NCBI GenBank assembly: GCA_009746045.1
Contig: RPFO01000115.1
Location: 1,080,734 to 1,144,733, forward strand
Source of the DNA: Mesostigma viride
Taxonomy: Eukaryota; Streptophyta; Mesostigmatophyceae; Mesostigmatales; Mesostigmataceae
Reading direction: 5' to 3'
DNA length: 64,000 nt
Shown: piece after piece, positions 8,081 to 63,361 of the stretch
Layout: each line of letters opens with the position of its first letter
Numbering within the stretch: position 1 is the stretch's first letter
Translations under genes and position numbers: made by a program
The notes under the pieces: model-generated
What the model was told of the DNA's origin: nothing
Database searches by the model: none
The model's input: only the letters and a program-made list of their open reading frames with translations

Positions 8081-8461
8081 CATATGCCCCTTCTCAGGGA
8101 TATATGTTAAAAATATAATTACTTACAGCAGAGTGAAATCACTCAAACCAAAGCAAACGCCCAGCTATGAACCTATATACAGAGCCATGTCAAAGCTCTA
8201 TACTACGATAAGACCAATGGAAACGCCTAACGGGAGGAACCTAATAGCCCTGCTGCACCGCAAAATCAGCCCGCGTACGGCGGAGCATGATGTCAGCCAT
8301 GGCCCGAGTCAGCGCCACCGACAAGCGCTGACGCCAATATGACGTCCAGGTCCGCGCCGACCATGGGGCCCGCTGGCCCTCCAGGTCCAGCCGGTCCTCC
8401 CGGAGCCTAAACAGGGATATATGTGCTACATGTCATGCAGTACTCCCAACGGAGTTATGTT
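8081..8461. repeat. terminus of a foldback-family element (FB-C), interrupted
   Basis: 8081-8106 (CATATGCCCCTTCTCAGGG then ATATATG) and 8412-8461 (CAGGGATATATGTGCTAC ... CCCAACGGAGTTATGTT) together form one copy of the terminal sequence also seen at 8646-8699, 39194-39246, 40440-40501 and 46973-47010. The copy is split by the 8107-8411 insertion. All copies end at ATGTT (or AACAT on the other strand), beyond which the flanks differ. Confidence 0.65.
8107..8411. mobile_element. 305-bp insertion with a 12-bp direct duplication
   Basis: The 12 bases CAGGGATATATG occur at 8095-8106 and again at 8412-8423, flanking this block and splitting an FB-family terminus. A duplication of that length suits a target-primed (SINE or LINE) insertion or a small DNA element. 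No tRNA-like promoter or coding motif was recognised in it. Confidence 0.5.
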
Positions 8462-8699
8462 CCTAACTGTGGACTCGAGCCTCGAGGAGTCTGAGAGGAA
8501 AGACACTGCTAACGACCGGATCGCGGAAGCGGCGGCATCATGGCCGGTTAGTGTCTCGGACTCTCGGTACCTACTCATAAGTATTAATACTATCTAGTGA
8601 ATTTGATATAAATAGGCGTGTTAAATGAAATGAAAACTAAATTGTAACATATCTCCGAACGTTGGGAGTACATATAGCACATATCCCTGAGAAGGGGCA

Positions 8700-9266
8700 T
8701 GTTACGTCGCGTAACAATTCGTTGTAGTTACGGACGTAAATTAGGTCTTTTGCCTCGGTTGTCCCTAGGTTTACGTGTAGCTCCTACCGGGACACTATTG
8801 TCCTCGTAACAGTACTGTGGTACATTGGGTGCCGTTGGGCGCCGCGCCGCGTACTTTACTAGTGGTCCTTATCCTTTGGTAGAATGTAGTGGACCAGCGT
8901 GCATCTGTATCTGTGCCGGTGCATCTGTAGGCGAGGGCCATGTCGGCCCGAGCGTGTTGGACCGTTGGTGACCATTTATGCACGTTCTACCCCTCGTACG
9001 TGTGTTCACTCGGCGTGTGTTAAATGGATTAACACATATAGGCTTGGGTCACGGCAGTGTAGTTGTGTTTCCTTCCTCTATTCCTGGAGTAAACGGGTTG
9101 TGTAAATGGCTTATGGCGTATTATAGCAACACTTACGTTAATGCATTGAGATCTGGATCGTCTCGTTCGTCTTTCGCTAGGGGTTTAACTAGAGGTGGCT
9201 TGACTAGTTTAGGTAGCATCAGGCCAGGTAGAGGTAGAGGTAGTGGTAGATACCCGAGGCGTAACA
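8700..9266 (+). repeat. chromovirus 5' LTR
   Basis: 567 bp, matching 19508-20070 almost base for base. It begins TGTTACGTCGCGTAACA and ends GAGGCGTAACA. It should contain the element's promoter and, in the 3' copy, the polyadenylation signal; I could not place these. Confidence 0.93.
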
Positions 9267-12053: not shown

Positions 12054-12101
12054 GCCTGTCAGCCGGGGGTAACCTGGACAGGTCCTTCTTAGATAGTACC
12101 C

Positions 12102-12645
12102 AGTTACGTTAAATAGTGCCGGAACCTTTTGCCGCCTGAGGCAAATCGGTCCGGAACACTATTTTGCCCGGAATAACCACTTCCGAGCACCCAAGTTAAT
12201 TCGGCCGAATTAACTTGGGTGCTCGAAAGTGGTTATTCCGGGCAAAATAGTGTTACGGACCGATTTGCCTCAGGCGGCAAAAGGTTCCGGCACTATTTAA
12301 CGTAACTAAAACCCGTGCACCTTGGAGGTCAGGGGTTCGAATCCTTACTGAGGCAGCTCCGGCGCATTTAGTGGTGCGTGCTCAGCGGCCTAGGCGGATG
12401 TCTCGGGCTCTTCGTCCCCCCTCCACGAGGCCAGGTTTTAGTTACGTTAAATAGTGCCGGAACCTTTTGCCGCCTGAGGCAAATCGGTCCGTAACACTAT
12501 TTTGCCCGGAATAACCACTTCCGAGCACCCAAGTTAATTCGGCCGAATTAACTTGGGTGCTCGGAAGTGGTTATTCCGGGCAAAATAGTGTTACGGACCG
12601 ATTTGCCTCAGGCGGCAAAAGGTTCCGGCACTATTTAACGTAACT
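12102..12645. mobile_element. palindrome-tRNA-like-palindrome composite element, copy 1
   Basis: 544 bp with target duplication TACCC (12097-12101 and 12646-12650). Two 206-bp near-perfect palindromes (12102-12307 and 12440-12645, centres at TCGGCCGA) flank a 132-bp core (12308-12439). Because the ends are palindromic they are both direct and inverted repeats. The ends read AGTTACGTTAAATAG ... CTATTTAACGTAACT. The core has GGTTCGAATCC, a perfect Pol III B-box. No ORF. It lies inside the chromovirus between gag and protease. Copy 2 is at 61268-61743 in the other orientation. Confidence 0.93.
12267..12355 (+). ncRNA. tRNA-like structure within composite copy 1
   Basis: An 89-nt class II tRNA-like fold: a perfect 7-bp acceptor stem GCCTCAG/CTGAGGC with discriminator A; a short D-stem CGG/CCG whose loop holds GG; GCAC/GTGC at the anticodon stem with an oversized 21-nt loop; a variable arm ACCT-TGG-AGGT; and a T-arm with loop TTCGAAT. 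The T-stem has G:T pairs and one A:A mismatch. The A-box is weak. The 5' half lies in the palindrome and the 3' half in the core. It may drive Pol III transcription of the element; unlikely to be a working tRNA. Confidence 0.55.
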
Positions 12646-12732
12646 TACCCCAGATAAAAATTTTTGCCTGCCTGTTTTTATAACCTCTGTAGGAGCTGAA
12701 TCTTCCCTATACCACTACGTGTGCGTCCTCTT

Positions 12733-19507: not shown

Positions 19508-20070
19508 TGTTACGTCGCGTAACAATTCGTTGTAGTTACGGACGTAAATTAGGTCTTTTGCCTCGGTTGTCCCTAGGTTTACGTGTAGCTCCTACCGGGA
19601 CACTATTGTCCTCGTAACAGTACTGTGGTACATTGGGTGCCGTTGGGCGCCGCGCCGCGTACTTTACTAGTGGTCCTTATTCTTTGGTAGAATGTAGTGG
19701 ACCAGCGTGCATCTGTATCTGTGCCGGTGCATCTGTAGGCGAGGGCCATGTCGGCCCGAGCGTGTTGGACCGTTGGTGACCATTTATGCACGTTCTACCC
19801 CTCGTGTGTGCACTCGGCGTGTGTTAAATGGATTAACACATATAGGCTTGGGTCACGGCAGTGTAGTTGTGTTTCCTTCCTCTATTCCTGGAGTAAACGG
19901 GTTGTGTAAATGGCTTATGGCGTATTATAGCAACACTTACGTTAATGCATTGAGATCTGGATCGTCTCGTTCGTCTTTCGCTAGGGGTTTAACTAGAGGT
20001 GGCTTGACTAGTTTAGGTAGCATCAGGCCAGGTAGAGGTAGAGGTAGTGGTAGATACCCGAGGCGTAACA
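19508..20070 (+). repeat. chromovirus 3' LTR
   Basis: 563 bp, starting TGTTACG and ending CGTAACA, followed by the GGGCA duplication at 20071-20075. Compared with the 5' LTR it has one clear substitution (TATTCTTTGG) and a small gap (about 4 bp) near 19806. Confidence 0.93.
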
Positions 20071-21826: not shown

Positions 21827-24800
21827 TCAAACACTGACTCTGATATCATAGGGGTTCATGTTCTGAAAGAGGAGCTGGTACTGTTGGCCAGCAGCATCCC
21901 GCAGCTTCGTGAGAGCGTCTGCTGGGTTGTCCTCATCATCCACATGAGTCCAGCTGGAAAAATAGGTGGCCTCCTGTTTGAGGATCACCCAATCCAAGTC
22001 AGTGTGGACAGCAGCAGAGACAGATTTCTTGGTTAGAAAGCTGATCACAGATTGGCTGTCAGTATAGAGATGTGAGATGACATTGCATGTGCTGCCTGCC
22101 TGGGTTTGTAGCCAGGTGAGCATGTGCTGCAGGGAACGAGCATGCAATGCAGCAGACACCACAGCACGACATTCAGCTGAGTTGCTGCTGCCAGGTTTTC
22201 TGCGGTGTAGCCTGCTGTACCAGGAAGTGAGGGACATGTAATCTGACCTGTTGGTGAGAAAAAACAGCCCTGATTCCCGTGCCCCCATCTGATTGATTGT
22301 TCTGCTCTCCATGGAGCTGTCCATGACACATTGGATGTGGATGTCTTCCATCAGATTCAGGCCATGGAGGATGAGGGGGGGACAGTCATTGACCAACTTC
22401 CTGATGTGACTGCATTTGATCTTGACTAGAACATCATGGGTGACCCTGCTGATGACAGCTAAGGGAGCCCCACAGATGGCTGACCACCACCCCAGTTTGC
22501 CCTGAACAGTGGCACACATATGTAAGGGGAGGTAGTTGTCCTGCAGCAGATCTAGACAATCTTGGATATATTCTGCAGGAGGGGAGAGAGAGCAGACCCA
22601 CTGATCTGGCTGCCTATGCAGCTGCAACATGATGCCACAGAACTGGATGGGGGTTGTGCTCAATTCCACCTGTTTGCCAATCTCATATGATTCCTGGACC
22701 TGCTGAATAAAGGTTTCCACCTCAGCTCTAGGCCCACAAATGAGTTGGTCATCTCCATGCCACACAAAGAACAGCAGTCCAGAGGGGGTGGGTACAACAA
22801 AAAAGCATGGGTCCAGGTCATCATACGTGGCCTTGAGCTTTTTGAATACTTCCTCTGCTGAGTCTCTGAAAATTTTTGGGGCACTGACAAGCCCTTCCAC
22901 CCCAATGTTGATGATAAGGTGGGGCTCATCAATATAAGGTTTCCACACAGCTGGGGTGTCTACCACGTACACCTTCCCTTTCCACACAGATTCAGCCTTT
23001 TCTGGGTCCCCCCTGAGGAAGGCCCTTTTAATATCAGTGGCTTTGCAGACATAGTCTTGGCCTGCATTGAGGTTGTGGAGGAAGAGGGAGAGCATGATCC
23101 TGAGTGAGGTTTGTTGCAGCCCAGGTGTGTATGTTTCCCCTTTTGGCAGTGTGGATGTCCCCTTTAATTCTGTGACACATGGTCTGGCATGGAAGATTGG
23201 GGAGCCCACTTTTTGTGGTTTTTGTTTGAGAACAAATTTTAATCTGAGCTTTTTGGCTCCCTCTGGCACGTCCCATGAAGGGGTGACAGGCGGTTTGTAT
23301 TGAGGGTTTTTGGGGTTGGGCAGGACCCATTCCTGCCTGGCTTGGTGGACAATGGCCATCAGCCACTTGGTAAACCCTTTTTGTGTTTTGCATTCTTGTA
23401 TGACGTGGGAGATTTGGTGGGGTGAGTGCATGGCTATGTCCCACTTACCCAGCCCAAAGGCTGAGGGATGGAGGAACTGGCTGTGCACTAACTTGTCCAG
23501 ATCAGGGATCTCCCCTGGTGCATACTGAGTGTTGACTGCCTTGATGACAGCATCCATACCAGGGACAATACTGGAGAGAGGGATTTTAAAGTGGTCCAGA
23601 GGAACTGCACCCACCCCTGTGACACTGAGCTCATTAGCTGAGATAAGCACCCCAGGATAGGATACAAAAGGTTCCCCCAACAAGGTGTTACCAGAGTACC
23701 CCTCCACCACCTGGAAGGGTGTCTGAATACCAAGTATAGGGAGCATCACTTGTCCCACTACATCCAGTGAGCTTTGGCCTGAGAAATCCTGCACCCGTGC
23801 CCAAAATGAAGGTGCAATCTCAAGACCAGGGATGGCTTGTGCACTGATCACACTGACCTGTGCCTGAGTGTCTATTGCCAGGGTCCAGGGGTCCTGACTA
23901 GTGCACACAGCTGAGACTTTTGCCAACCCTGCGGCCACAGCAGCTTGTTGCTTATGTGACCTGTGTAATGCTTGCAAGGCGACTGCCAATCTTGACCTCA
24001 GAGCGGGAGGGTTGGCAGACAATTTGGTGCCTTGGGGCTGAGCTAATGCTTCCAACCCAGCTACCTCGTGCCTGGTTAAGCAATCCCCAGGTTGTGAAGT
24101 GGGCCTGGCTTCACTGAGGGTGGAAGTGTTCACAGAGGGTGCTGTGGTGCTGTCAACAGCAGTAATTGGTGGCTCAGAGCTACTGCTGGGCATGCTGGAG
24201 TTGCCAGATAGAAGTAGTGAGTCCATGCTTAAAGACTCTTCCCCAGGCACGTCTGCCATGGGAGAATAATACTTCTTAATTCTATGACAGCTCACCCTGT
24301 GACGCTTCCCATTGATATTGTGCTTGACCTCCACGGTCTTGCTGTTTTTGGTAAATCCACGGATGGTAACTGGACCTAGCCAAGTTCCAACCTTACCAAA
24401 GCTGTTTTCCTTGTAATAGAGAACTTGATCACCTTTTTGGAATACTGGCCTGGAATGGGTTTTATCTTTTTCTGCCAGTTTTGCTGAGGTTTGTGCACGT
24501 GCAGTGTTGTACAGTGCTATCACCTCTGGGGGATATACACCTGCCTGCAGGCCTGCTGGGATTACTTCACCCCACGTGGCATGCAAGACAGGTCTCATGT
24601 TTAGGGTTGTGCACATTTCATGACACCAGAGTGCCCTGTCACAATAGACCCCTGAAGTAGCATCCTTGGAAGGATTTTTGGCTAGTAGGGTTTTGACAGA
24701 TCTGATGGTTCTTTCAATGACCCCCTGACCCTCATGATCTTCCAGCCCAGCAATCTCTATTGCTTCACACCCTTCCAGGTCAGTCAGACAAGAAAATTGT

Positions 24801-25540
24801 TGATCAAGCAAAATTCTGTCAACTGGGTAGAATCTGGGTAAAGCAATCATGAGTGCAACACGTAGCTGCCCTGCAGACATGCCAGGTAGGGGTTCCATTA
24901 CTGTGAACCTGGACCATGAGTCTTTTAGGATCAGGTAGGGTTGGACATCTTTGTTGATGTGCATCACATCCCCCACTATCATGCCCCTATTGGTGGAAGG
25001 AGTTGCAGTATGCCATTTTTGAGGTTTGGGGCTATTGAACTGACATTCTTGACAGTGTTGTCTAGCCAGTTTTACTGCATTCCTGAGTTGTTTTCCCATG
25101 CTACTACCCCCCAGCCGTCTGGCCAGTTCCTCAGCCACTGTTTCATGACCCATGGCTAGGTGCAGCTGATGAGCAAGCTCCTTGATATCTATGGAGTTGT
25201 CAACAGTAGGGGTTAGTGCTTTTATGTAAGGTTCCAGAACAGGGTGTTGGGAGGACAGTAAGGTTGCTGCCTCAAAATCAATTATGCCCTGGTTGCCATC
25301 CCCAATGGTAATGAGATCATCATCCTCAGAGTACATAAGGTGAGTGAACTCACATTGATTTGGGTAGCGAGGCCTGTTGCAACGGCTGCCTGGAGGCCCC
25401 AGGGGATGACGTGCGTGCCAGCAGCCCGGGCAGAGATCCACCCCGTTGGCCAGGGAGTCGTTGTTGGGGCAGTTGTGCCGTGCGTGCCCTCGTTGGAAGC
25501 ACCTCAGGCACCTTATGGACCCCCCAGGGTTGCCAGGCTG

Positions 25541-25571
<31 letters not shown>

Positions 25572-25665
25572 CCCTGCTGGGACCGGTTCTGGCCCTGCTG
25601 GGACCTGTTGTTGTTGTTGTTTTGGCCCTGTTGGGACCTGTTGTTATTGTTGCCCTGCTGGGACC

Positions 25666-25696
<31 letters not shown>

Positions 25697-25717
25697 GGGG
25701 TTGCCATGCAGGGGCAC
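21827..25717 (-). CDS. pol: Copia-1 polyprotein: zinc knuckle, integrase, protease, RT, RNase H
   Basis: 1296 codons. Residues 8-59 are Asn-rich; CCHC knuckle at 70-83; integrase HHCC at 186, 191, 222, 225; DDE at D250, D305, E335 (29 residues between the last two, shorter than DD35E); SH3-like tail ~425-485; retropepsin-like domain ~610-700 with AIDTQAQVSVIS (D616) and LLGEPFVSYPG; copia-type RT ~820-1090 with TDIKRAFLRGD (D895) and VWHGDDQL (D989/D990); RNase H to the end (AECRAVVS, LYTDSQSVISFL, NPADALTK). The protease lies after the integrase, unlike known Ty1/copia (PR-INT-RT) or Ty3/gypsy (PR-RT-INT). A long intact frame suggests recent activity. The start codon is nominal, since Gag should be fused upstream. 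Confidence 0.88.
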
Positions 25718-26457
25718 ACGGTGCCACGTGTTGCCACGCCCCTGAGAGCCACTGCCCCCTTGGTGGGAGGACTTGTGGGTCTTGGGTGCCCCCCCTGGCT
25801 GGCCTGCCCCTTGCGTTTGTGGCCTTGGACACCCTGGACCTTGGGGTCCTGGGCCTGGTTGTTGCCAGTACCCAGGGGGTCCACTGCCTCCTCGATATAG
25901 AGCATGGCAGCTCTGAAGTTGTCCCAGAGGGACTTGAGGCCTGTAAGCAGGGTAGCCAGGACAGAAGGTTGCAAATTAGCTTTTGTTAGCCAGGTGTGGA
26001 TGAGATACCTTGGTTGGAGCTTGAGAAGCTCAAGGTCTTTCTCAATCATTACCCTGTATGTTTTTGCATCCCCAGAGAGGTTATTCTTGTTCACCTTATA
26101 TGCAGCAAGCCAGTTGAAACGTTCTACTGCTTCCATGTGGTTATTGGTAAGCACTAGCTGTTTCAGATCAGTGATAAAGGTAGGCCACTGTTCAATGGCT
26201 GCTTCAGGTGTCAGGGTACGTTCCTGATAGGTTTGAATCAATGCTCTGATTGCAGGAGATGATTGATGGAATGTGGAGGAGGCCCTGAGAGCCTTAAACT
26301 GATGTCTAAGGTTAAGACCTTCCATCCCATACTCCAAAGCAAAAACAAATTGCTTAGCTTGTTCAACAGTGTGACCCTCAGGCAAGCCAGCAATATTGAT
26401 TTTGGATTCCTTTTTATGAGGGTTAAACACACCTGTGAGAGGGGGGTTGGCCCTCAA
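25513..26457 (-). CDS. gag: Copia-1 Gag capsid ORF
   Basis: The capsid-like segment (AKQFVFALEYGMEGLNLRHQ, FNWLAAYKVNKNNLSGDAKT, RYLIHTWLTKANLQPSVLAT, LKSLWDNFRAAMLYIEE) matches Copia-2 (FKGFNWLASYKVNKSDYVRD-type block and KYLIHQWLTKAEL). After it the frame enters poly-Thr encoded by an (AAC)n-type tract, while the pol frame reads the same DNA as poly-Asn and then the zinc knuckle, so the true coding path changes frame in or before the tract. Confidence 0.7.
25536..25700 (-). repeat. (AAC)n-type trinucleotide tract in Copia-1 gag-pol
   Basis: Runs of GTT on the plus strand, broken by repeated CCTGCTGGGACC-type units. In the pol frame they encode Asn runs with RSQQG spacers. Slippage here could explain the gag/pol frame change. 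Confidence 0.8.
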
Positions 26458-31898: not shown

Positions 31899-33280
31899 CT
31901 CAGGTCAAGGCGGTGTTCAAGGGTCCCCAGCAAGGTAAGAAGGCAGGGGGGTCATCCAAGCAGCAGGGGAAATCAGACAAGGGGGGAAAGGGGAACCCAG
32001 GCAGTAAGGCAGGGCCCTCCCAGGGGCCTAGTCAGAAAGGTAAGCCTCATGACTCCACCCTGTACTGCACCAGGTGCTCATGCAAGGGGCATGAGAGGGA
32101 TGATTGCTGGAAGGGCAAACCCGAACTTGGATCTGATGTGGATGTGTGCCCAGGTTGCTGGGAGCCCCGCCACCCGTTACCTGCAGGGGGACGCTGCAAC
32201 AAGCCCAGGAAGGGAGCCTCGACGGGGCGCCCCACAAAACAAGCCAGCACTCAGGACGACTGTAAGTCTCCTGTACCCTGGTTTCTCAATGGCCGTGTAC
32301 CTTCTATTTGCTCTGTGTTGCCTGACAGTGAGGAAGTGGATTGGGACCTGGCTTATGACATGACGTTAGCACAGGTGGCCCAAGATCCCACTATAGCCTC
32401 CTTAGATGCAGCAGCAGATAAGGTTATATCCTATGCCAGGTTAGCCCAACAGCTACACAAGGCAATGGGGCATGAGGCAGTGGCAGAAAGGCTGGCCAAC
32501 AAAATTGATGGCCGTGACCTGGAACAGATGTGCAGGCATGTCAGGAAGCACTGTGAAGCGTGCCAACTGCATGCACCTAAACCCAAGAGATGGCATGTGG
32601 CCACCCCACCACTGGCTAGAGGAAAGCTAGTAGGGGATGTGATACACCTGGTGAAGGACACGGTGTATTACTTGGTCCTAAAAGATGCCTGGTCTAGGTT
32701 TGTGGTGATAGAACCCTTGCCAGGCATGGCCAATGAACAACTGCACAGAGCCCTGCTGATTGCACTAGCACGGTATCATCCTCAGGAAAAATTAATGCTG
32801 GATCAGCAGTTCACGTGGATACAAGATTATCCTGATCTGCCCAAGATAGACATTGCTGGGGCTCAAGATCATGAACGCCAGGGGATGATTGAACGTACCA
32901 TGCGTGCTATCAGGGACCTCATAAAGAAAAATGAGTCCAGGACAGCAGAGTCTGGGAGCTATGCTGATAGGACAGCGTGGGCAGCTGAGGTGTGCAGAAC
33001 TCTGAACACCAAGCCCCTCATGTCTTCTCCTTTTGGTGAAATCACATCAATTGGCCTGCAATCAGGTAGCTACTCTCAGGAGGTACTAGACCACTACAAC
33101 ACGCAAAGGCAACACTTGGCCAAGTTGCTGGCAAAAAAGGATAAGAGTAATGCCAGGCCTGTGTTTGAAGTGGGGGATCAGGTACTCTACTATAGGGAGG
33201 GGAAGGGAACAAAGCCCACTCTGGTAGATGGCATGGTCCAGCTGAAATCATCAGGTTGTCAGAAACAGGTGACACGGTGA
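31892..33280 (+). CDS. pol: Copia-2 zinc knuckle and integrase
   Basis: 462 codons. A Gly/Lys-rich start, CCHC knuckle (CTRCSCKGHERDDC), then CPGCWEPRHPLPAGGRCNKP as in Copia-1. Integrase HHCC (LHKAMGHEAVAERL, CRHVRKHCEACQ), D in VGDVIHLVKD, D in LMLDQQFTW, E in MIERTMRAI (29 residues between). It ends in the SH3-like part (EVGDQVLYYREGKG) after a frame change. Inserts the cDNA into the host genome. Confidence 0.85.
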   Translation: MVAQVKAVFKGPQQGKKAGGSSKQQGKSDKGGKGNPGSKAGPSQGPSQKGKPHDSTLYCTRCSCKGHERDDCWKGKPELGSDVDVCPGCWEPRHPLPAGGRCNKPRKGASTGRPTKQASTQDDCKSPVPWFLNGRVPSICSVLPDSEEVDWDLAYDMTLAQVAQDPTIASLDAAADKVISYARLAQQLHKAMGHEAVAERLANKIDGRDLEQMCRHVRKHCEACQLHAPKPKRWHVATPPLARGKLVGDVIHLVKDTVYYLVLKDAWSRFVVIEPLPGMANEQLHRALLIALARYHPQEKLMLDQQFTWIQDYPDLPKIDIAGAQDHERQGMIERTMRAIRDLIKKNESRTAESGSYADRTAWAAEVCRTLNTKPLMSSPFGEITSIGLQSGSYSQEVLDHYNTQRQHLAKLLAKKDKSNARPVFEVGDQVLYYREGKGTKPTLVDGMVQLKSSGCQKQVTR

Positions 33281-35277
33281 CTATTCAGCATCACAGAGAG
33301 CGAATGGTTGGCAAGCATAGACTGAAGCTTTATTACCCTCCTTTGGCAGACGTGTCAGGGGTAGAATTCTTGGACATGGATTCAGAGCCTCAGTCTGGTG
33401 GGTTGGTCTCACCCAGTGAATTGGCTAGGGACATAGCTGATGCAAGCAACACAACCATAGACGCTCCTGTGTTCCTCAGTGGTGCAGCCCCACCACAGCC
33501 CACTGGTCCAACTGGGCAGGAGGAACGTGCACTGGATGAGCAGCAGGTCGCTCCTCCCTCATCTCAGGAACAGCCACGCGAAGCAGCAGATCCTGTTGTC
33601 CCCAGGAATAAATTTGCTGAGGCTCTAAAAGCTCTACATAGAGCACACACTGCCAAGGCACAAATGGCAGCAGGTGCAGCACAAGTCAATGCTGTGGGTG
33701 AATCTAACCAGGATCCCAGTATTCTGGCAGTAGACACACAGGCACAGGTGAGCATCATCAGTGCACAAGCTGTATCTGGCCTAAGTCTGCAACGCTCGCC
33801 CTGGGCTAGAGTGTCAGATTTTTCAGGCAAAACAAAAATGGCAGTCAAAGGCCAAGTGCTAATTCCCATTCTGGGTGTGCCCACTCCCTTCCAGGTAGTA
33901 GAGGGCTACAAGGGGAATGCACTGCTGGGGGAACCATTTGTCTCATACCCTGGAGTAGTCATCTCAGCTGGGAGGTTGAGTGTGACTGGGGTGGGGCAGG
34001 TCACCCTGGACCATTTCAAAATTCCTTTAACACAGATCAGTGATGGCCTGGAAGCAGCCATCAATGCTGTCAACATAAAATACCTCCCAGGTCAGGAACC
34101 CTGTGTTGATTCCCTCATTCATTCTCAGAAGCTACACCCCTCTGCGTTTGGGCTTGGTAGATGGGACATAGCGTCCATGTCTCCCTTGTCCTATGATGAT
34201 GTGGTCAAAGACTGTCAAACGCAGATTGGTTTTCTGAAATGGATGGAAGCCTTTAACAGGGCTAGAGAGGAATGGGTTTGTCCTGATCCACGTAGTAAGT
34301 CCCAGGTACCACCTGTAACACCGATTGAGGCACTGCCACAAGGGGCCAGAAAGCTCAGACTGAAGTTTGTCTGCAAGCATAAACCCCAGGCAGATGGGAC
34401 ACCTCCCATTTTTCATGCCAGACCTTGTGTCACGGAGTTCAGGGGCTCCACTGAGCTAACAGAGGCTGAACTGTATACCCCTGGTATTCAGCAGACGTCT
34501 CTTAAGGTCCTGTTGGCCACTTTCCTTCACCATCTGAATGCTGGTAAGGACTACGTGTGTAAAGCCACTGACATTAAGCGTGCCTTCCTTAAAGGCAACC
34601 CTGACATAGCCCAAAAGGTGTGGAGGGGTCAAGTCTATGTGGTAAACACTCCCAAAGTCTGGTCTGGGGACATCAAGGAACCTCATCTAAGGCCTAACTT
34701 GGGGGTAGAAGGGCTTCAGTCAGCACCTAAAATTTTTAGGCTGTCTGCCCAAGAGGTCTTCCTGAAGCTGGGGGCCCAGTATGATGATATTGACCCTTGT
34801 TTCTTCACCATCCCTCATCCTGCTGGTATGATGATGTTTGTGTGGCATGGGGATGATCAGCTCATTACTGGTCCCAGGGCAGCTGTGGAGGATTTCATTG
34901 CTCAAGTGTCTGCTAGCTTTGAATTAGGCAAGCAGCTGGAGCTGGGGAAAGATCCTGTCAAGTTCTGTGGCATCATTCTGAACCTGTTTAAGGAGCAGAA
35001 GGAGTGGGTGTGTTCTCTCAAAGCATCCCCTGAGTATGTCATGTCTTGCAAAGATGTTCTTCCCTCTGACATCACTCCTGATCTCTGTCCCACTATTAGG
35101 GGTAAGCTAGGTTGGCTGTGTGCCACTTGTGCTCCTCATCTGGCAGTGGTCAGCAGAGTGGATGATGATGTCCTCATGGAGGTAGGGTCTAGGGCTATTA
35201 AACAGGTGTTGCATGATGGCCCTCCCCTTATTCTTCATGCTTGGATCTGTTCCAACCCATCCACATCACATGCATGA
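33256..35277 (+). CDS. pol: Copia-2 integrase tail, protease and reverse transcriptase
   Basis: 673 codons. Integrase SH3-like tail (TVTIQHHRERMVGKHRLKLY), protease with VDTQAQVSIISAQ (near 33725) and LLGEPFVSYPG, RT with KLRLKFVCKHKPQ, TDIKRAFLKGN (motif A), GVEGLQSAPKIF and VWHGDDQLITG (motif C). It confirms that the protease lies between integrase and RT. It terminates about 500 bp before the element's coding end through a shift near 35240. Confidence 0.88.
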   Translation: MSETGDTVTIQHHRERMVGKHRLKLYYPPLADVSGVEFLDMDSEPQSGGLVSPSELARDIADASNTTIDAPVFLSGAAPPQPTGPTGQEERALDEQQVAPPSSQEQPREAADPVVPRNKFAEALKALHRAHTAKAQMAAGAAQVNAVGESNQDPSILAVDTQAQVSIISAQAVSGLSLQRSPWARVSDFSGKTKMAVKGQVLIPILGVPTPFQVVEGYKGNALLGEPFVSYPGVVISAGRLSVTGVGQVTLDHFKIPLTQISDGLEAAINAVNIKYLPGQEPCVDSLIHSQKLHPSAFGLGRWDIASMSPLSYDDVVKDCQTQIGFLKWMEAFNRAREEWVCPDPRSKSQVPPVTPIEALPQGARKLRLKFVCKHKPQADGTPPIFHARPCVTEFRGSTELTEAELYTPGIQQTSLKVLLATFLHHLNAGKDYVCKATDIKRAFLKGNPDIAQKVWRGQVYVVNTPKVWSGDIKEPHLRPNLGVEGLQSAPKIFRLSAQEVFLKLGAQYDDIDPCFFTIPHPAGMMMFVWHGDDQLITGPRAAVEDFIAQVSASFELGKQLELGKDPVKFCGIILNLFKEQKEWVCSLKASPEYVMSCKDVLPSDITPDLCPTIRGKLGWLCATCAPHLAVVSRVDDDVLMEVGSRAIKQVLHDGPPLILHAWICSNPSTSHA

Positions 35278-38678: not shown

Positions 38679-39193
38679 ACGGGCGCACCACAAGGGCTGC
38701 AGAGGGTGCTGGGCTGCTGACAGGGCATGCGAGGCGGCGTGCTCTGAGGAACAGGAGGCGCGCGTCGTAGATGGTAGCCAAGTAGCTGTATAGGTCACCT
38801 TAGCATAGGGCTAGACCTTTGGCTACCGCCGCGCGCGCGCATGTTTATGCTGGCACATGTTCGTGTGTTTTATGGCATGGTGTCTTGGGCCAACACCTGG
38901 GCTTGACAATTTTGTGCATTTGTGTGTCTTGCCACATGTTTATGCCGTATGGAATAAAGTTTTGCATTGGTTTGTTAGCAAATAGTAGCAAAAAAACTCA
39001 GTCCGGAGTGAGCAAAATAACTCAGTACGGACTGAGTTATTTTTGACTTTTTGCTACGTGGCGTGTAGAGCTCTGTAACATTCCATGAAGTCAGTGTTCC
39101 TATGGCCTTCCTAGGATTATTTTCATCTGCCTTTGAAATTCCAGGGCCAACAACATTGTTACACAACAGATATTGCACTATTAATTAATTATC

Positions 39194-39480
39194 AACATCA
39201 CTCCGTTGGGAGTAAATGTAGCACATATCCCTGAGAAGGGGCATATGGCTTTAAATACATTCTAGGCTACTTCATGCAAGGGTGGGAATGTAAGCTACCC
39301 CTGCTCTAGGTGCACCAGGGCACCTAGCTGCACCCTCATGGTCTATCACGCTATGCCCGGGTAAGGGGGGGAGCATGCCATGTGGGGGAAGATCATCATG
39401 GCTATACGAGAGCTATAGGGCATGGCTTCTCAGCAGGGAGGGACTCCCTGCATGGGCACTGCATAATTAAATAAAGCTAG
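39194..39480. repeat. FB-B, arm of a foldback element
   Basis: Starts AACATCACTCCGTTGGGAG, continues through GAGAAGGGGCATATGGC, TTTAAATACATTCTAGG, GCAAGGGTGGGAATGTAAGC and GGTGCACCAGGGCACC, and ends near GGGCATGGCTTCTCAGC. It is the uninterrupted counterpart of the FB-A arms and shows the likely pre-insertion sequence for the piggyBac-2 TTAA site (here TTTAAA at 39252-39257). A second arm of this copy is not evident. Confidence 0.7.
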
Positions 39481-39622
39481 GCATCATCTGGAGGGTAGCT
39501 CATCATAGGCACACATGTACATGACTAAAAAGGCTAGGCCTCAGCTGGTATAGTGCCTGTTGTAGGCGGGCATGTACAAGGCCACTGTCTAACTATTCTA
39601 CGTATACTACTGCTGTATTCCC

Positions 39623-40190
39623 CTAGGCTGGGGCTGGAGTCGCTGGGGCCGCGGTGGTCGAGGGGGTCGCGTGCCAGGGCTTGTGGCCGACGTAGATGGC
39701 CGCCCCCTTCCAGTACACCGGCTGGCCCGCCTTGGTCTGCCGGAGCTGGAGGTAGGTCGGCCATAGCTCCCGTCGCCGTTGTTGCTGTGCCAGGGTCAAG
39801 TCGTCGTCCACGGTGAAGTGATCATGAGTCTTCTCGAGCCGCTTGCGGCGTCTGAGAAACGAAATCTTGTCCGCTGGGCTCTCAAAGATGAGAAGAAGCG
39901 GAGGCGCCCCTGCCTTACCCCGCGCGCGGGGGAGGCGGTGCATGGGCGGTCAGCTTAATCTCACCAAGGAGGCCCATGCGTGCAAGGATTTTGCTCTCAA
40001 ACGCACGTGCAAGCTTCTCGGAATTCTCACCTTCCTCCATGTCGAAGTTCTTGAGTATGGCGTTGAGGCTGCGCTTGGCGACCTCGGCCTCCTCGCGGAG
40101 GTCAAGCGTCTGCCGCTGGAGCTGGGCTGCGACGGCGGAGGTGGTGCATGGAGGTGGTGTGCTGCTTACGCATGTCCGCCCAGGTCGTGA
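39623..40190 (-). pseudogene. LINE ORF1-like fragment
   Basis: Minus-strand frames give a helical stretch (LREEAEVAKRSLNAILKNFD and ARAFESKILARMG), then LLLIFESPADKISFLRRRKR, DDDLTLAQQQRRRELWPTYL and GQPVYWKGAAIYVGHKPW. This resembles the coiled-coil plus RNA-binding/CTD layout of LINE ORF1 proteins. There is a stop near 39945 between the parts. It lies inside the piggyBac-2 3' region, opposite in strand to the LINE at 40621. Family assignment is tentative. Confidence 0.5.
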
Positions 40191-40439
40191 TGGGAGGATA
40201 TTGCACTATGTACATGTCAAATCCCGATTTTCCGTACCCCCCTGGGGTGTGCGCTATTTATAGCACCCAAAAGTAACTGATTTGGGACCAGTGACCTATT
40301 CCCCATGAAAATCAACATATATGCATGCTTGGTGCCAAGGGGTGGCCAGAAATTGTTTTTAGGCCATACACAGCAAATTTGCAAAGATGTGCAACTCAGT
40401 CTGTTAAATAGGACTGAGTGTACACCATTTTAGGGTTAA

Positions 40440-40501
40440 AAGCCATATGCCCCTTCTCTGCATGGGATATGTGCTACATTTACTACCAACGGAGTTATGT
40501 T
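40440..40501. repeat. right terminus of FB-A
   Basis: Directly after the piggyBac-2 TTAA: AGCCATATGCCCCTTCTC, an inserted TGCAT, GGGATATGTGCTACATTTAC, then CAACGGAGTTATGTT. It is the inverted partner of 8646-8699. Confidence 0.75.
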
Positions 40502-40503
40502 CC

Positions 40504-40547
40504 TAATTAATTAATTAATTAATTAATTAATTAATTAATTAATTAAT
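40504..40547. repeat. (TTAA)n microsatellite
   Basis: About eleven TTAA units. A similar run closes the LINE at 46352-46376. Confidence 0.95.
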
Positions 40548-51513: not shown

Positions 51514-52123
51514 TCGGTTTTCTCTGAATATAGTTTAATTAACGCATGCGGGAAAGATAAGGCCGCCATGCCTTGGCCTGGATGTGGAAGGCTGTCTGCG
51601 ACATGGGCTGACTAATTCGATCTGTACAAAGGGTTTCCTGCTCGCCCGAATTTTCCTTGGATGACCCGGTTGTTTATAAGGGTCGGTGGCTATTAATTAG
51701 CGGTCCGAGAAAATTAATTGTAGGTTTTATACGACTTCACTTGCAAAGATTCGTGTTTGGTTGCACCAGCTGAGGTTAGGTGGGGACCTGTAGGGTCGGC
51801 TGGTTGCTTACCGAATCTTTGGCTGATTTGGGTTATTTAGTGAGTCGTGATTAATTATTGTATAGTGGATTCGGACCGACCCAAGGGGTCGATGGGCGCG
51901 TTTTATGGTTGTCAGTCTTGGGAACCTTGTACAACTACCTGTACGGTTAACGCACTAGCCTGGGGGTGCGTGGCCACGCTGTTTGTAGTGGCGTTTTCAG
52001 CACTGTTCAGGCCGGTGTGTGACGCATGCCGGTGTTAATTAATTTAGGATGATGTCAGCTTGTGTGTCGGCGGGCCATGCCTTAAGCAAGCTAGGCAGGC
52101 AATGATCCGCAATTGTTTCTTTC
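51514..52123. repeat. A1 repeat of the non-autonomous element
   Basis: 610 bp, starts TCGGTTTTCTCTGAATATAG, same as 53087-53696 except about two bases. Confidence 0.9.
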
Positions 52124-52957: not shown

Positions 52958-53086
52958 TGGAGGCTTCTTGCTTCCGCGTGCGGATTGAGAAACCTTAAGG
53001 CCACTGTTAACTGCTGCATTTGTGGCAGGGCTCCACTTATTGTATTCAATCAAATGCTGGTCTTCTTGGGAGCTGAGTGATTTTAA
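52958..53086. repeat. B1 repeat of the non-autonomous element
   Basis: 129 bp, starts TGGAGGCTTCTTGC, ends GAGTGATTTTAA; identical to 53712-53840 by eye. Confidence 0.9.
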
Positions 53087-53696
53087 TCGGTTTTCTCTGA
53101 ATATAGTTTAATTAACGCATGCGGGAAAGATAAGGCCGCCATGCCTTGGCCTGGATGTGGAAGGCTGTCTGCGACATGGGCTGACTAATTCGATCTGTAC
53201 AAAGGGTTTCCTGCTCGCCCGAATTTTCCTTGGATGACCCGGTTGTTTATAAGGGTCGGTGGCTATTAATTAGCGGTCCGAGAAAATTAATTGTAGGTTT
53301 TATACGACTTCACTTGCAAAGATTCGTGTTTGGTTGCACCAGCTGAGGTTAGGTGGGGACCTGTAGGGTCGGCTGGTTGCTTACCGAATCTTTGGCTGAT
53401 TTGGGTTATTTAGTGAGTCGTGATTAATTATTGTATAGTGGATTCGGACCGGCCCAAGGGGTCGATGGGCGCGTTTTATGGTTGTCAGTCTTGGGAACCT
53501 TGTACAACTACCTGTACGGTTAACGCACTAGCCTGGGGGTGCGTGGCCACGCTGTTTGTAGTGGCGTTTTCAGCACTGTTCAGGCCGGTGTGTGACGCAT
53601 GCCGGTGTCAATTAATTTAGGATGATGTCAGCTTGTGTGTCGGCGGGCCATGCCTTAAGCAAGCTAGGCAGGCAATGATCCGCAATTGTTTCTTTC
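53087..53696. repeat. A2 repeat of the non-autonomous element
   Basis: Abuts B1 directly, as expected of a circular junction copied into the element. Confidence 0.9.
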
Positions 53697-53711: not shown

Positions 53712-53840
53712 TGGAGGCTTCTTGCTTCCGCGTGCGGATTGAGAAACCTTAAGGCCACTGTTAACTGCTGCATTTGTGGCAGGGCTCCACTTATTGTATT
53801 CAATCAAATGCTGGTCTTCTTGGGAGCTGAGTGATTTTAA
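53712..53840. repeat. B2 repeat of the non-autonomous element
   Basis: Copy of 52958-53086 that closes the element; host sequence (CATACAAAAGTG) follows. Confidence 0.9.
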
Positions 53841-56458: not shown

Positions 56459-56880
56459 CCCCCCCCACACCCACGCATGCATGCTAGCCCACCCCCACAC
56501 CCACGCATGCATGCTAGCCCACACTCACACCCACGCATGCATGCTAGCCCACCCCCACACCCACGCATGCATGCTAGCCCCCCCACACACCCACGCATGT
56601 GCATGCCAGCCCCCCCCACACCCACGCATGCATGACAGCCCCCCCCACACCCACGCATGCATGCTAGCCCCACACACACACCCACGCATGCATGCCAGCC
56701 CCCATACACACCCACGCATGCATGCCAGCCCCCCCCACACTTACGCATGCATGCTAGCGCCCCACACACACCCACGCATGCATGCCAGCCCCCCCCACAC
56801 CCACGCATGCAGGCTAGCCCACCCCCACACCCACGCATGCATGCCAGCCCACCCCCACACCCATGCGTGCATGCCAGCCC
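56459..56880. repeat. minisatellite, 14 units of about 30 bp
   Basis: Unit CCCACGCATGCATGCTAGCC plus CACCCCCACA, repeated 14 times with small changes. Every unit has GCATGCATG-type alternating purine-pyrimidine words. A 175-codon frame runs through it (His, Pro, Ala, Cys), but that is a by-product of the repeat. Confidence 0.95.
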
Positions 56881-57149
56881 ACCCCTAGCTTGAGCGTGCT
56901 TGTAAAGTTTTTGCATGGTTTATTAAAATGAGTGGAATATGTATTTATTGCATTAAATGTTAATTTTATCATGAATGAAAATGGTCAACATTGCCGAAGT
57001 GCCCCTAAATTGCTCAATATTGTGTGCTCAAGAATTCAATGAGGATTGTCATCATGGAAACCCGCACAAATTCACGATTCCGGGCATGCATGTGAAAGTA
57101 TCAAGAACAATTTTCAATTAAGAATGGTATCTCATTGTTCCATGAATCA

Positions 57150-58179: not shown

Positions 58180-58387
58180 TTGGTGAGCTATGCTCATTTT
58201 ATCTATGACTAACCTGCTGAGCGGAGAATGCAACGCCGTATAGCACCAAAAGAAAAAATAATTTTAGAAAAAATATTTTTTGTGCTGGCACCCGTACCCC
58301 AGCCACCCAGGTAGGGGTTGGCTGGAGAGGTGGTTGCTATAAAGGGTGGGCTTCCATTCTAGGGAAGCAGGTTGTTTTCTTTTGCCT
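58180..58387 (+). repeat. A1 repeat of the DIRS-type element
   Basis: 208 bp from TTGGTGAGCTATGC to CTTTTGCCT; one visible difference from 63559-63766. Confidence 0.92.
58338..58347 (+). promoter_or_regulatory. possible TATA box in A1
   Basis: CTATAAAGGG lies about 110 bp before the first gag ATG (58456). The same sequence occurs in A2. Confidence 0.4.
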
Positions 58388-58455
58388 GAGAACCTCACGT
58401 GACCACAACACAAAAAACAAAACGCAAGATAACACATCAAGCAGTATAACCTACC

Positions 58456-59558: not shown

Positions 59559-59754
59559 GGGAGCGGTGCCTTCTTCCACTACCTCTTCCAGCACCCCTGC
59601 CACCTCGTGACTGGTGGCAGCAGGTACGCTCAGGCCGTAGGCGCGATAGGATGAGTCGGGCTTTTAATGCTCGCACACTAGCCTGTCAGACGGTTAGGGC
59701 GTTAAACTGGATGGGGGGGGGGGGCGAGACCCGCCTGCTGTAGATTCAGCCCGT

Positions 59755-61269
59755 GTGCCCGGGCCTCTGCAGCAGGCGGCCCTAGATGGGATCGATGATG
59801 CTTGCAGGTCCTTTGTCCGCCGGAACGGTGGTTCCGTAGCGGCAATGGCAGGATCTGTAGTGGATGGGGGTGAATATGCTGAAGGAGCCCCTTACGAACC
59901 GTTAGTGGCCGCACGCTTGGCTTTGCCTGGACCGGGGGAAGGTGGCCAAGTGGATGTGCTGAACTTACTACCCCCCTCTTGGGGAGCAATTTTGAATGAT
60001 GAGAGTAGGATGGTACGGACGCTGAGCCCAGCAGAGCGGATCTTGCAGAAGTCGATGCGGATCTCGCGGGGGTGTAGCATGGAGGAGTTCGCGCGGGTTT
60101 GCACGGTGTGTGTGGAGAGGGGGATTTTGGGTGGATTTTTTGAGGAGGAGCCGCCTATGGTGAACGGTACTTTCGGGGTCGGAAAGCCCGACGGCCGTAT
60201 ACGGCTGATTGTGGACAACCGGCGTGGCAACATGCCACTACCTGATCCTATGCCCGCTTTTTTACCACACCTTGGCGTGATTTGCGATTTGCCCACGCGC
60301 GCTGGGGAGGATGTTTTTGGGGGCGTATCAGATTTGGATTCGTACTACAACAGACTCCGCCTGCCAGTTTGGATGCGGCGGTACTGTGCGTGGATGCCGG
60401 TGTGGTCGGATCTGGTGGGCCTGAGTGGGGCTCGTCGGAAGGTGTGGCCGTGGATGTTGTGCTGGCCAATGGGCAACAAGCTGGCCGTCGCGGTGGCCCA
60501 GTGTGTGCATCAGTCTGTGTTGTACCGCTGTGGCCCCAAGCCGCCGTTGGAGGCTAGTCGTGGGCTGAGCATCAACATGTCCGCGCTGATCCTGGTGGCG
60601 GAGGCCAACGAGGCGGGGGAGACCGTCCGGCTGAGGCTGGAGGAGGACCCTGCTGCGCCCTTGGCGCCCTCGCCGTGCTTCGAATCTCGGCAGGATCTGG
60701 AAGGTATGCATGCTGTGACGATCGATGATCTCCATTTCACCCACTGTGCGTCGGTGGATGGGGTGAATCAGCAGCTAGATCGTGTTCAGGCTGCCTACGC
60801 CGCTGTTGGGCTGGTGCAGAAGTCTGACAAGGTGGTACGGGCGACAGCAGAGCAGACTGGTGTGCAGGCGGTGGGGGTCATTCACCAAAGGGATGGTGAC
60901 GTGGTGCCTGTTCCTGAGCGTGTGGTGGCAGTTATCGCCGCTACTCATAGAATCTTAGATCGCGGGTTTACATACTACCGCGAACTTAGTTCTGTGCTTG
61001 GGAAGTGGGTGTGGATGCATCTGCTGTGCCGCCCCATGCTTTCGGTGTGGTCTGAGACGTACCGGCTGCTAGCAGCCATGAATGCCTCCCTGCCTGGGCG
61101 CCGCTGGCGCCTCCCTGCGGGGGCCCGCCAGGAGCTTCAGGCGGCGATCGACCTGGCCCCCTTTTTGAGGGCGGCCAGGGCCCGGCCCCTTTCTGACCGG
61201 GTCGTCGCAAGTGATGCGAGCGGCTCCGGCGGTGGGGTGGTCTACAGGGACCTGCCTGGGGCCGATTAG
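59755..61269 (+). CDS. DIRS-type reverse transcriptase, and RNase H start
   Basis: 504 codons (nominal start; the frame upstream is shifted at a G-run near 59713-59722). RT: NGTFGVGKPDGRIRLIVDNR, GVSDLDSYYNRLRLPVWMRR (motif A), WPMGNKLAVAVAQCVHQSVL (motif B region), AVTIDDLHFTH (motif C, IDD), GVIHQRD, YYRELSSVLGKWVWMH. RNase H begins VVASDASGSGGGVVYRD, then the composite insertion ends the frame at GAD-stop. After removing the insertion and one CGATT the frame continues without a stop into 61749 and onward. Confidence 0.85.
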   Translation: MPGPLQQAALDGIDDACRSFVRRNGGSVAAMAGSVVDGGEYAEGAPYEPLVAARLALPGPGEGGQVDVLNLLPPSWGAILNDESRMVRTLSPAERILQKSMRISRGCSMEEFARVCTVCVERGILGGFFEEEPPMVNGTFGVGKPDGRIRLIVDNRRGNMPLPDPMPAFLPHLGVICDLPTRAGEDVFGGVSDLDSYYNRLRLPVWMRRYCAWMPVWSDLVGLSGARRKVWPWMLCWPMGNKLAVAVAQCVHQSVLYRCGPKPPLEASRGLSINMSALILVAEANEAGETVRLRLEEDPAAPLAPSPCFESRQDLEGMHAVTIDDLHFTHCASVDGVNQQLDRVQAAYAAVGLVQKSDKVVRATAEQTGVQAVGVIHQRDGDVVPVPERVVAVIAATHRILDRGFTYYRELSSVLGKWVWMHLLCRPMLSVWSETYRLLAAMNASLPGRRWRLPAGARQELQAAIDLAPFLRAARARPLSDRVVASDASGSGGGVVYRDLPGAD

Positions 61270-61743
61270 TTACGTTAAATAGTGCCGGAACCTTTTGCCG
61301 CCTGAGGCAAATCGGTCCGTAACACTATTTTGCCCGGAATAACCACTTCCGAGCACCCAAGTTCATTCGGCCGAATTAACTTGGGTGCTCGGAAGTGGTT
61401 ATTCCGGGCAAAATAGTGTTACGGACCGATTTGCCTCAGGCGGCAAAAGGTTCCGGCACTATTTAACGTAACTAAAACCTGGCCTCGTGGAGGGGGGACG
61501 AAGAGCCCGAGACATCCGCCTAGGCCGCTGAGCACGCACCACTAAATGCGCCGGAGCTGCCTCAGTGAGGATTCGAACCCCTGACCTCCAAGTTGCACAG
61601 GTTTTAGTTACGTTAAATAGTGCCGGAACCTTTTGCCGCCTGAGGCAAATCGGGCCGGAACACTATTTTGCCCGGAATAACCACTTCCGAGCACCCAAGT
61701 TAATTCGGGGCGGCAAAAGGTTCCGGCACTATTTAACGTAACT
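61268..61743. mobile_element. palindrome-tRNA-like-palindrome composite element, copy 2
   Basis: 476 bp with target duplication CGATT (61263-61267 and 61744-61748). Palindrome 61268-61473 (206 bp), core 61474-61605 (132 bp, in reverse orientation to copy 1), and a second repeat 61606-61743 that lost 68 bp from one half. Ends and core match copy 1 with few differences. It lies in the RNase H coding region of the DIRS-type element. Confidence 0.93.
61558..61646 (-). ncRNA. tRNA-like structure within composite copy 2
   Basis: Same 89-nt fold as at 12267-12355. Acceptor GCCTCAG/CTGAGGC is intact. Changes from copy 1 include a T-stem change (CCTCA instead of CCTTA) that improves one pair, and a changed variable arm (ACTTGGAGGT). 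T-loop TTCGAAT is kept. The 68-bp deletion in the neighbouring palindrome does not touch it. Confidence 0.55.
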
Positions 61744-61831
61744 CGATTGTGCCCGGCTGGCGACCCGGCGCGAAGCGCGGGGGTGGCGGACGACAGCTTT
61801 AACGTCTGGGGAGGACTGGGACCTGGAGCGC

Positions 61832-63166: not shown

Positions 63167-63361
63167 CGTCCTCCTGTTTTTACCTCTCGTCTTTTAGCTA
63201 TCAACTGACCTCACCCTTGTGTGGGAGGTCAGGGGGGAAATGGTTTAACTAACCCGAGGGTGAACCTGGGTTGGGACAAAGTACCCCCATAGCTAGGTAG
63301 TTTAAGTTTTCTTTTTTGCATGTCCTACGTATTTTCGGCTGTTAGCCATGTAAGGAGATGT

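What the first reader, a model, noticed from the sequence alone, without database searches (positions are those of the whole stretch)
12102..12645. New composite mobile element: two 206-bp palindromes around a tRNA-like core, two independent insertions
Copies at 12102-12645 (TACCC duplication) and 61268-61743 (CGATT duplication) lie in unrelated retroelements in opposite orientations, share the same boundaries and a 132-bp core, and encode no protein. Terminal repeats that are palindromes make them direct and inverted repeats at once. I know no described SINE, TRIM or foldback family with this plan. The LTR-like size, 5-bp duplication and lack of ORFs resemble a TRIM; the B-box resembles a SINE; the hairpins resemble foldback elements.
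Basis: partly seen in the sequence, partly recalled or inferred. Interest (0 to 1): 0.9.

Follow-up and report, generated by a model that had tools for sequence, protein, structure and literature searches.

The report
Nested-palindrome foldback transposons of an alga
A green alga's genome carries many copies of small jumping DNA pieces built as palindromes inside a larger palindrome; the two copies in this window are a short form of a family that has moved recently.

Summary
In detail: both copies have 206-bp palindromes (103+103; one damaged in copy 2), a 132-bp core and 5-bp duplications. The window comes from a 440-Mb genome, read as Mesostigma viride. The commonest sampled form is 882 bp: three palindromes and two cores in opposite orientation, itself one giant palindrome (15 of 38 two-ended entries). 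Ends number about 3,130, core edges 1,634. Of the 38, 36 have a 5-bp duplication and none a 6-bp one. A lone palindrome has one too. A second family has homologous arms and a different core, sharing mainly a ~30-bp B-box stretch; it shows the same plan, with 5-bp duplications in 11 of 11 examined. Best reading: a non-autonomous foldback-type DNA transposon, moved by an unidentified transposase. Its palindromes probably fold, break at their tips (10 of 16 broken ones) and are copied from one another. It fails the tests for TRIM and SINE. No tRNA was detected and no autonomous element found, in partial searches. New variant of a known kind.

The parts
12097..12101 (.). 5-bp target-site duplication TACCC, left
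12102..12307 (.). palindrome P1 of copy 1 (arms 103+103, 2 differences between arms)
12266..12277 (+). A-box-like TGCCTCAGGCGG, 2 mismatches to TRGCNNAGYNGG (consensus recalled), 56 bases before the B-box; weak
   Evidence: positions transferred to P1, read
12308..12439 (+). 132-bp core; begins AAAACC and ends GGTTTT
12334..12344 (+). exact B-box GGTTCGAATCC
12436..12439 (+). TTTT at the end of the core; possible Pol III stop (inference)
12440..12645 (.). palindrome P2 of copy 1 (arms identical)
12646..12650 (.). TACCC, right
61263..61267 (.). 5-bp target-site duplication CGATT, left
61268..61473 (.). palindrome P1 of copy 2
61474..61605 (-). 132-bp core of copy 2 (3 differences from copy 1)
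61606..61708 (+). left arm of palindrome P2 of copy 2
61709..61743 (-). outer 35 bp of the right arm of P2; 68 bp lost from the axis outward
61744..61748 (.). CGATT, right

Best explanation
The finding is a short form of a non-autonomous DNA (TIR-type) transposon of the foldback kind in what is most likely Mesostigma viride. SHOWN: each palindrome P is two 103-bp ends set back to back; two-ended elements are chains of P and core that begin and end at a P edge (AGTTACG...CGTAACT) and nearly all are flanked by exactly 5 duplicated bases. The commonest sampled chain is P-c-P-C-P, a single 882-bp palindrome with the B-box side of both cores facing the middle P. A second family with homologous arms and a different core has the same plan. 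INFERRED: a transposase supplied in trans recognises the arm as its end and cuts the target with a 5-base stagger. Since every P offers a left and a right end, a lone P, P-core-P or longer chains can all be moved or left behind. INFERRED: the palindromes fold into hairpins; tips are cut (deletions that start at the axis) and one arm or unit serves as template for another (variants shared by both arms of a P; equal cores within a copy). Unequal exchange between the identical P modules changes the number of cores.
For: Fixed ends and 5-bp duplications: 36 of 38 two-ended entries, 0 of 38 match over 6 bases. In 20 further stretches, not checked for shared flanks, 13 show it (one in a run of C); of the other seven, four are cut at the edge of the stretch (L067, L069, L078, L085), L083 is unclear, L084 is broken and has none, and L066 is a 24-bp remnant with GTATG. 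Family 2: 11 of 11, 8 by script (one in a run of G), L102-L104 by eye. Lone P with AAGGG (L054). Copy 2 interrupts an ORF; flanks joined without one CGATT give one 995-aa open frame. Copy 1 lies between two LTR-like repeats of 567 bp with 1 mismatch and 2 gap openings, so it is likely young. Same plan in family 2: in about 33 listed loci with long matches on both strands (my reading; list cut short) + lies left of -, one also has a -,+ junction; whole two-core elements are palindromes of about 1,038 bp, 99.2%. Arms of the families: 77.8% over 80 bases. Shared variants: of 107 palindromes 10 have a variant in both arms, 9 in one arm only; 24 of 27 multi-core loci have one core haplotype, shuffled mean 11.1, 0 of 20,000 shuffles reach 24. 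Tip breaks: 10 of 16 broken palindromes have a break at or within about 5 nt of the axis (my count, junctions read).
Against: No transposase or autonomous copy was found, so the superfamily is open. AGTTACGTTAAATB has 5 sites against 3 for its reversed control and showed no new partner; these searches cannot see an autonomous copy whose ends equal the family's, or one with other ends. 5 bp is not the duplication of the foldback families read here (8-10 bp Tetris; 7 bp Galileo). L061 and L084 have no duplication. In family 2 the tips of P' stay asymmetric (20 of 20 left outer ones), so arms are not always copied whole onto each other. 9 of 107 palindromes have one-arm variants, some at commonly variable sites. 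Equal cores in one locus could also come from amplification of a few master elements or gene conversion.
Confidence: 0.75

Rival explanations
1. TRIM: a tiny LTR retrotransposon remnant with 206-bp LTRs, moved by a retroviral-type integrase.
For: Direct terminal repeats, 5-bp duplication, lone P like a solo LTR, many LTR elements in the published M. viride genome (PMC6947507, section 8).
Against: Ends are AGT...ACT, not TG...CA (rule recalled). After the left repeat comes AAAACC in both copies, no TGG-type primer site; no purine tract before the right repeat (my reading). Terminal repeats are also inverted repeats. Cores lie in both orientations in 28 of 38 entries, which copying of LTR-element RNA is not expected to give.
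Confidence: 0.05
2. SINE: a Pol III transcribed tRNA-derived element copied by a LINE.
For: Exact B-box; A-box-like site 56 bases upstream in P; TTTT at the core's end. The B-box stretch is kept in family 2 although most of the core differs.
Against: Fixed DNA ends on both sides, no 3' tail, duplications of exactly 5 bp, no tRNA by ARAGORN or Rfam, the A-box has 2 mismatches, one diverged core has lost the exact B-box (L012 fifth core).
Confidence: 0.04
3. Same transposon, but no hairpin copying: the giant palindrome was made once and moves as an inherited unit; core numbers vary by unequal crossing-over, and likeness within a copy is recent amplification of a few masters or gene conversion.
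For: Family 2 keeps the same asymmetric tips in 20 of 20 left outer palindromes. Of 18 two-core entries 15 are cC, 3 same-orientation and 0 Cc, as expected from one founder; Cc junctions were seen only in longer arrays (L012; L077).
Against: 24 of 27 multi-core loci have equal cores while three haplotypes circulate. Private variants lie in both arms of a single P (L024, L043), which needs copying at that P.
Confidence: 0.4
4. Assembly or sequencing artefact of palindromes (false inverted repeats from long reads).
For: Palindromes are hard to assemble; one locus (L016) abuts a run of N.
Against: Flanks on the two sides differ and carry exact 5-bp duplications at dozens of sites; an artefact would mirror the flank as well.
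Confidence: 0.03

Closest known systems
Foldback-like Galileo (Drosophila; P superfamily)
   Same: Very long TIRs, internal tandem repeats in the TIR of variable number, TIR-only copies, solo TIRs, chimeric copies (PMC3573991, passages read).
   Different: Galileo has a known transposase and 7-bp duplications; its TIR repeats are not described as palindromes in the passages read. Here each end module is a palindrome and the duplication is 5 bp.
Tetris (D. virilis foldback)
   Same: Non-autonomous, modular TIRs with tandem units (TIR-220), no transposase found (PMC4079207, passages read).
   Different: 8-10 bp duplications and a middle domain between TIRs; here the middle of the commonest form is a palindrome and the modules themselves are palindromes.
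MITEs (features recalled)
   Same: Short, TIRs, fixed duplication, many copies, no long ORF.
   Different: A simple MITE has one pair of TIRs; here several end pairs sit in one element, a palindrome of palindromes. No parent transposon known.
Palindrome-centred inverted duplication by hairpin capping and replication (E. coli, yeast)
   Same: A palindrome forms a hairpin and copying gives an inverted duplication centred on it (PMC3315005 and PMC7467729, abstracts and outlines), the same geometry as P-c-P-C-P.
   Different: Those are chromosome rearrangements, not mobile elements.
Rolling-hairpin replicons such as parvoviruses (recalled)
   Same: Terminal palindromes that can self-prime.
   Different: No replicon or protein seen here; only an analogy.

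Membership tests
Foldback-type TIR transposon | Long terminal inverted repeats making up most of the element | tested here: met
   Inverted arms of 212 nt in copy 1; 882-bp and about 1,038-bp copies are palindromes throughout
Foldback-type TIR transposon | Modular TIR with variable number of repeat units | tested here: met
   0-5 cores per element, partial cores counted, in 38 two-ended entries
Foldback-type TIR transposon | Constant target-site duplication | tested here: met
   5 bp in 36 of 38, 6 bp in 0 of 38; 11 of 11 in family 2
Foldback-type TIR transposon | A transposase of a known superfamily that moves it | tested here: inconclusive
   None seen; listings are partial and no transposase family was searched
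MITE | Short, no long ORF, TIRs, high copy number | tested here: met
   206-1,891 bp; 3,130 ends with up to 1 mismatch; no ORF of 150 aa in the window copies
MITE | Ends shared with an autonomous DNA transposon | tested here: inconclusive
   None found (5 sites, control 3); search cannot exclude one
TRIM (LTR type) | LTRs with TG...CA ends | tested here: not met
   Ends AGT...ACT in both window copies and in the complete copies
TRIM (LTR type) | Primer-binding site and purine tract next to the repeats | tested here: not met
   By reading only: AAAACC follows the left repeat, GGTTTT precedes the right one
SINE (tRNA type) | A and B boxes in order | tested here: inconclusive
   B-box exact; A-box-like site with 2 mismatches
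SINE (tRNA type) | Recognisable tRNA head | tested here: not met
   ARAGORN none, Rfam none
SINE (tRNA type) | 3' tail and variable, longer duplications | tested here: not met
   Exactly 5 bp, palindrome edges on both sides
Composite transposon (two mobile ends around cargo) | The end module can be found alone with its own duplication | tested here: inconclusive
   One lone P with AAGGG (L054); could also be left by exchange between two Ps

The most novel reading that the evidence does not exclude
A DNA transposon that multiplies by hairpin copying: the palindrome at one end of a single-stranded or trimmed element folds back, its 3' end primes synthesis across the core and the far palindrome, and the inverted dimer (P-c-P-C-P, far Ps mirror images, both cores equal, middle P keeping its own asymmetric tip) re-inserts with a 5-bp stagger. 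That would be rolling-hairpin-like amplification in a eukaryotic transposon, used by two families that keep mainly the arms and a B-box stretch in common.
Probability: 0.22. Interest if true: 0.85.

Novelty: new variant of a known kind. Interest (0 to 1): 0.62.

Why it matters
Long perfect palindromes are usually unstable (general knowledge), yet this genome carries over a thousand of them (inferred from the end counts) inside elements that look young, with visible breaks at their tips. It is a natural data set for how palindromes form, are homogenised and break, and for how foldback transposons grow. Two families with the same plan and different cores make the question of what the ends and the B-box stretch do directly testable. 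The genome appears to be that of an early-branching streptophyte alga; in the main text of one genome paper (PMC7027972) 'palindrom' and 'inverted repeat' occur 0 times, and the passages and section that I saw of the other (PMC6947507) do not mention such an element.

Tried and rejected
tRNA identity of the core: ARAGORN on the window and on both copies, core and palindrome gave none. In one search the joined core+P+core gave 0 genes at the four stricter settings and 677 meaningless ones at the loosest, discarded; the output was cut, so the results for the other joins were not seen. Rfam. Structured RNA in the core: RNA z -1.26, DNA z -0.35 (120-nt inner part), not notable. miRNA-family hits to the hairpins (E down to 2e-9) lie far below the gathering score and reflect the long stem. 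Copies elsewhere: no exact 20-21-mer match in viral contigs or genome contigs (21); no blastn match in phages or plasmids.

Flip/flop of the middle palindrome: in family 2 the middle tip reads A|B in 9, B|A in 6 and otherwise in 5 of 20, while left outer ones are A|B in 20 of 20. I first took this for parvovirus-like flip/flop and dropped it: a P-c-P-C-P element is otherwise symmetric, so insertion orientation alone produces both readings.

A tRNA gene as source of the core: 7 genome sites of TTCGAATCCTCACTGAGGCAH (control 0) turned out to be members of the same element family (five clearly diverged, two close copies), without tRNA by ARAGORN or Rfam at gathering.

Literature: in the listings no title or shown abstract describes a family with this plan; one search returned nothing. 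Only open-licence PMC papers are held. PMC6947507: section 8 and passages. PMC7027972, PMC4079207, PMC3573991: passages. PMC3315005, PMC7467729: abstract and outline. Repbase and Dfam could not be searched.

Never answered: the exact counts of AGTTACGTTAAAT, AGTTACGTTAAAR and AGTTATTATAAATAG, the genome search with the core alone, and the empty-site search.

Full report
1. Observation. Both copies are as described. Copy 1 (12102-12645) has two 206-bp direct repeats, each a palindrome without spacer, and outer arms of 212 nt that are inverted repeats. Copy 2 (61268-61743) has the same parts but its last palindrome lacks 68 bp that begin at the axis. Arms differ from a reference arm at 0-2 of 103 positions, cores at 3 of 132; duplications are TACCC and CGATT. 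BLAST finds no other match in the window.

2. Where it is. The window is G000:C1913:1080734-1144733 of a 440-Mb assembly in 2,243 contigs. The top six protein hits to the integrase-type ORF next to copy 2 are models labelled jgi/Mesvir1, which I read as Mesostigma viride; the published M. viride genome is repeat-rich (66.02%, section 8 of PMC6947507). Copy 1 sits between repeats at 8700-9266 and 19508-20070 (567-bp alignment, 1 mismatch, 2 gap openings) that flank ORFs with Retrotrans_gag (below Pfam's cut-off), RVT_1 and integrase domains: a Gypsy-type LTR element (label from general knowledge). Copy 2 splits a reading frame; the part after it has a Phage_integrase domain and 211-bp repeats lie at both sides: DIRS-type by content. 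With one CGATT and the insert left out, the frame runs 995 codons. Both insertions are probably young.

3. Genome copies. The first search scored 40 of 707 candidate places and listed arrays. I fetched these loci and drew each as arms, palindromes and cores. One search took both window copies, L009-L047, two of the five extended views (L049, L050) and five of the twelve short stretches (L054, L058, L061, L063, L065). Of 52 entries 45 remained after removing equal flanks; 38 had both ends; 36 of 38 have an identical 5-bp flank and 0 of 38 an identical 6-bp flank. One insertion (L012/L021) is still counted twice. Of the two without, L030 (seen longer as L050) ends 19 bp further on in a 13-bp arm remnant and then has GGGCG (my reading); L061 has none. 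Forms among the 38, partial cores counted: two cores 18 (15 P-c-P-C-P, 3 with cores in one orientation, none Cc), three 8, one 6, four 3, five 2, none 1. In cC the B-box side of both cores faces the middle P. Cores in both orientations: 28 of 38. This sample was chosen by likeness to the query, so 20 further stretches came from the position lists; 13 of 20 show a 5-bp duplication. They were not checked for shared flanks. Of the other seven, L067, L069, L078 and L085 are cut at the edge of the stretch, L083 is unclear, L084 is broken and has none, and L066 is the 24-bp remnant. A middle junction of the Cc kind occurs in L012 and L077.

4. Numbers. The terminal 21-mer with up to 1 mismatch occurs 1,557 + 1,573 times, control 0. 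The inner edge ATTTAACGTAACTAAAACC occurs 818 + 816 times, control 0, hence about 817 core units. With about 2.3 cores per element in the sample (88 in 38) this suggests roughly 350 insertions (inference).

5. Small forms. A lone 206-bp P lies between AAGGG copies (L054). A 24-bp form of two 12-bp ends lies between GTATG copies (L066, by reading). They may be moved as such or be left over after internal loss; the data do not separate these.

6. Second family. A site led to C1791, where a different palindrome P' of 216 bp and a different core of 200 bp are fused to a family-1 core and P, the whole between ACGCT copies (by reading). A search with it scored 40 of 285 candidates (list cut short). 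In about 33 loci with long matches on both strands + lies left of -, one with an additional -,+ junction (my reading). Of three whole stretches, L102 and L103 are palindromes of 1,040 and 1,038 bp at 99.2%, and the three-core L104 contains one of 1,038 bp; 11 of 11 elements examined have 5-bp duplications, 8 by script and 3 by eye. The arms of the families match at 77.8% over 80 bases and can be aligned end to end. The cores share mainly ACCTyG.A.GTC.GGGGTTCGAATCC. In family 2 also, the B-box side of both cores faces the middle palindrome. So the plan, the arms and the B-box stretch are kept while most of the core is not. Diverged family-1 relatives have cores at 82-89%; arms are mostly 70-78% (short pieces to 85%) in L095, L097 and L098 but 94-95% in L096 and L099. 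They were found by a pattern in the core, which favours conserved cores; and one diverged core found otherwise (L012, fifth) has lost the exact B-box.

7. What happens to the palindromes. Of 107 palindromes, 10 carry a variant in both arms and 9 a variant in only one arm. Private two-arm variants: L024 third P, L043 third P; L038 has five variants in its first P only. In 24 of 27 multi-core loci all cores have the same haplotype at the two common sites; shuffling gives 11.1 on average and never 24 in 20,000 (shuffling ignores kinship between elements). The exceptions are L012, L015 and L034. In family 2 the tip is asymmetric in 20 of 20 left outer palindromes, so copying does not usually reach the tip there. 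(62 stretches, some overlapping) lists 348 arms in intact palindromes, some counted twice, and 38 irregular ones. After dropping ends of stretches, repeats and L083, I count 16 broken palindromes, 10 with a break at or within about 5 nt of the axis (E2, L017, L033/L051, L034, L058, L061, L063, L071, L084 twice); one or two would be expected if breaks fell evenly (rough inference).

8. Mechanism. Shown: fixed ends, 5-bp duplications, modular chains, two families. Inferred: a transposase in trans that recognises the arm; every P is a pair of ends, so several cuts are possible. Inferred, less sure: hairpin folding explains axis breaks, two-arm variants and equal cores. Hairpin formation and replication at a palindrome gives inverted duplications in E. 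coli (PMC3315005, abstract), and foldback inversions in yeast go through single-stranded hairpins (PMC7467729, abstract). Applied to P-c-P this would give P-c-P-C-P with the far Ps as mirror images. Why it is the B-box side that ends up in the middle is not explained; a single founder per family would do it, and is the main rival.

9. Known kinds. It meets the structural features of foldback elements and MITEs, fails those of TRIMs and SINEs, and lacks an identified transposase. The Tetris paper reports a similar situation, a modular foldback family without a found transposase (passages). The literature listings named in Tried and rejected showed no family with palindromic end modules nested in a palindrome; subscription journals, Repbase and Dfam were not searched. 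Verdict: new variant of a known kind.

Noticed in passing
window 39180-40515 and 8084-8700: Two other inverted-repeat pairs with related sequence (GGGATATGTGCTACAT type; 52 bp at 1,232 bp spacing and 26 bp at 565 bp), perhaps another TIR family; a similar motif appears in the flank of L060.
   Followed up: no
window 56429-56915: 30-bp tandem array (CCCACACCCACGCATGCATGCTAGCC type), 14 overlapping registers.
   Followed up: no
window 57078-58143: Repeats at steps of about 70, 141-145 and 215 bp just left of the DIRS-type element.
   Followed up: no
window 58177-63988: DIRS-like element: 211-bp repeats at 58177-58387 and 63556-63766, further 197-bp repeats at 63362 and 63792, Phage_integrase domain in the ORF 61742-63166.
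   Followed up: partly
window 51514-51813 and 53087-53386; 52958-53086 and 53712-53840: Identical interleaved repeats within 2.5 kb, unexplained.
   Followed up: no
window 21827-25975 (-) and 33196-35277 (+): Copia-type reverse transcriptase matches (RVT_2; the first below Pfam's cut-off) with long repeats at both sides.
   Followed up: no
L064 1-590: Tandem repeat containing CCCAGTTCAAACCCGCGCAGGGGCTAG, a T-arm-like motif (label recalled), next to an element copy.
   Followed up: no
L012/L021, L026/L027/L046, L032/L044/L045, L040/L041: Same insertion present at several places with identical flanks of 57-60 bp: segmental duplications or haplotypes in the assembly.
   Followed up: partly
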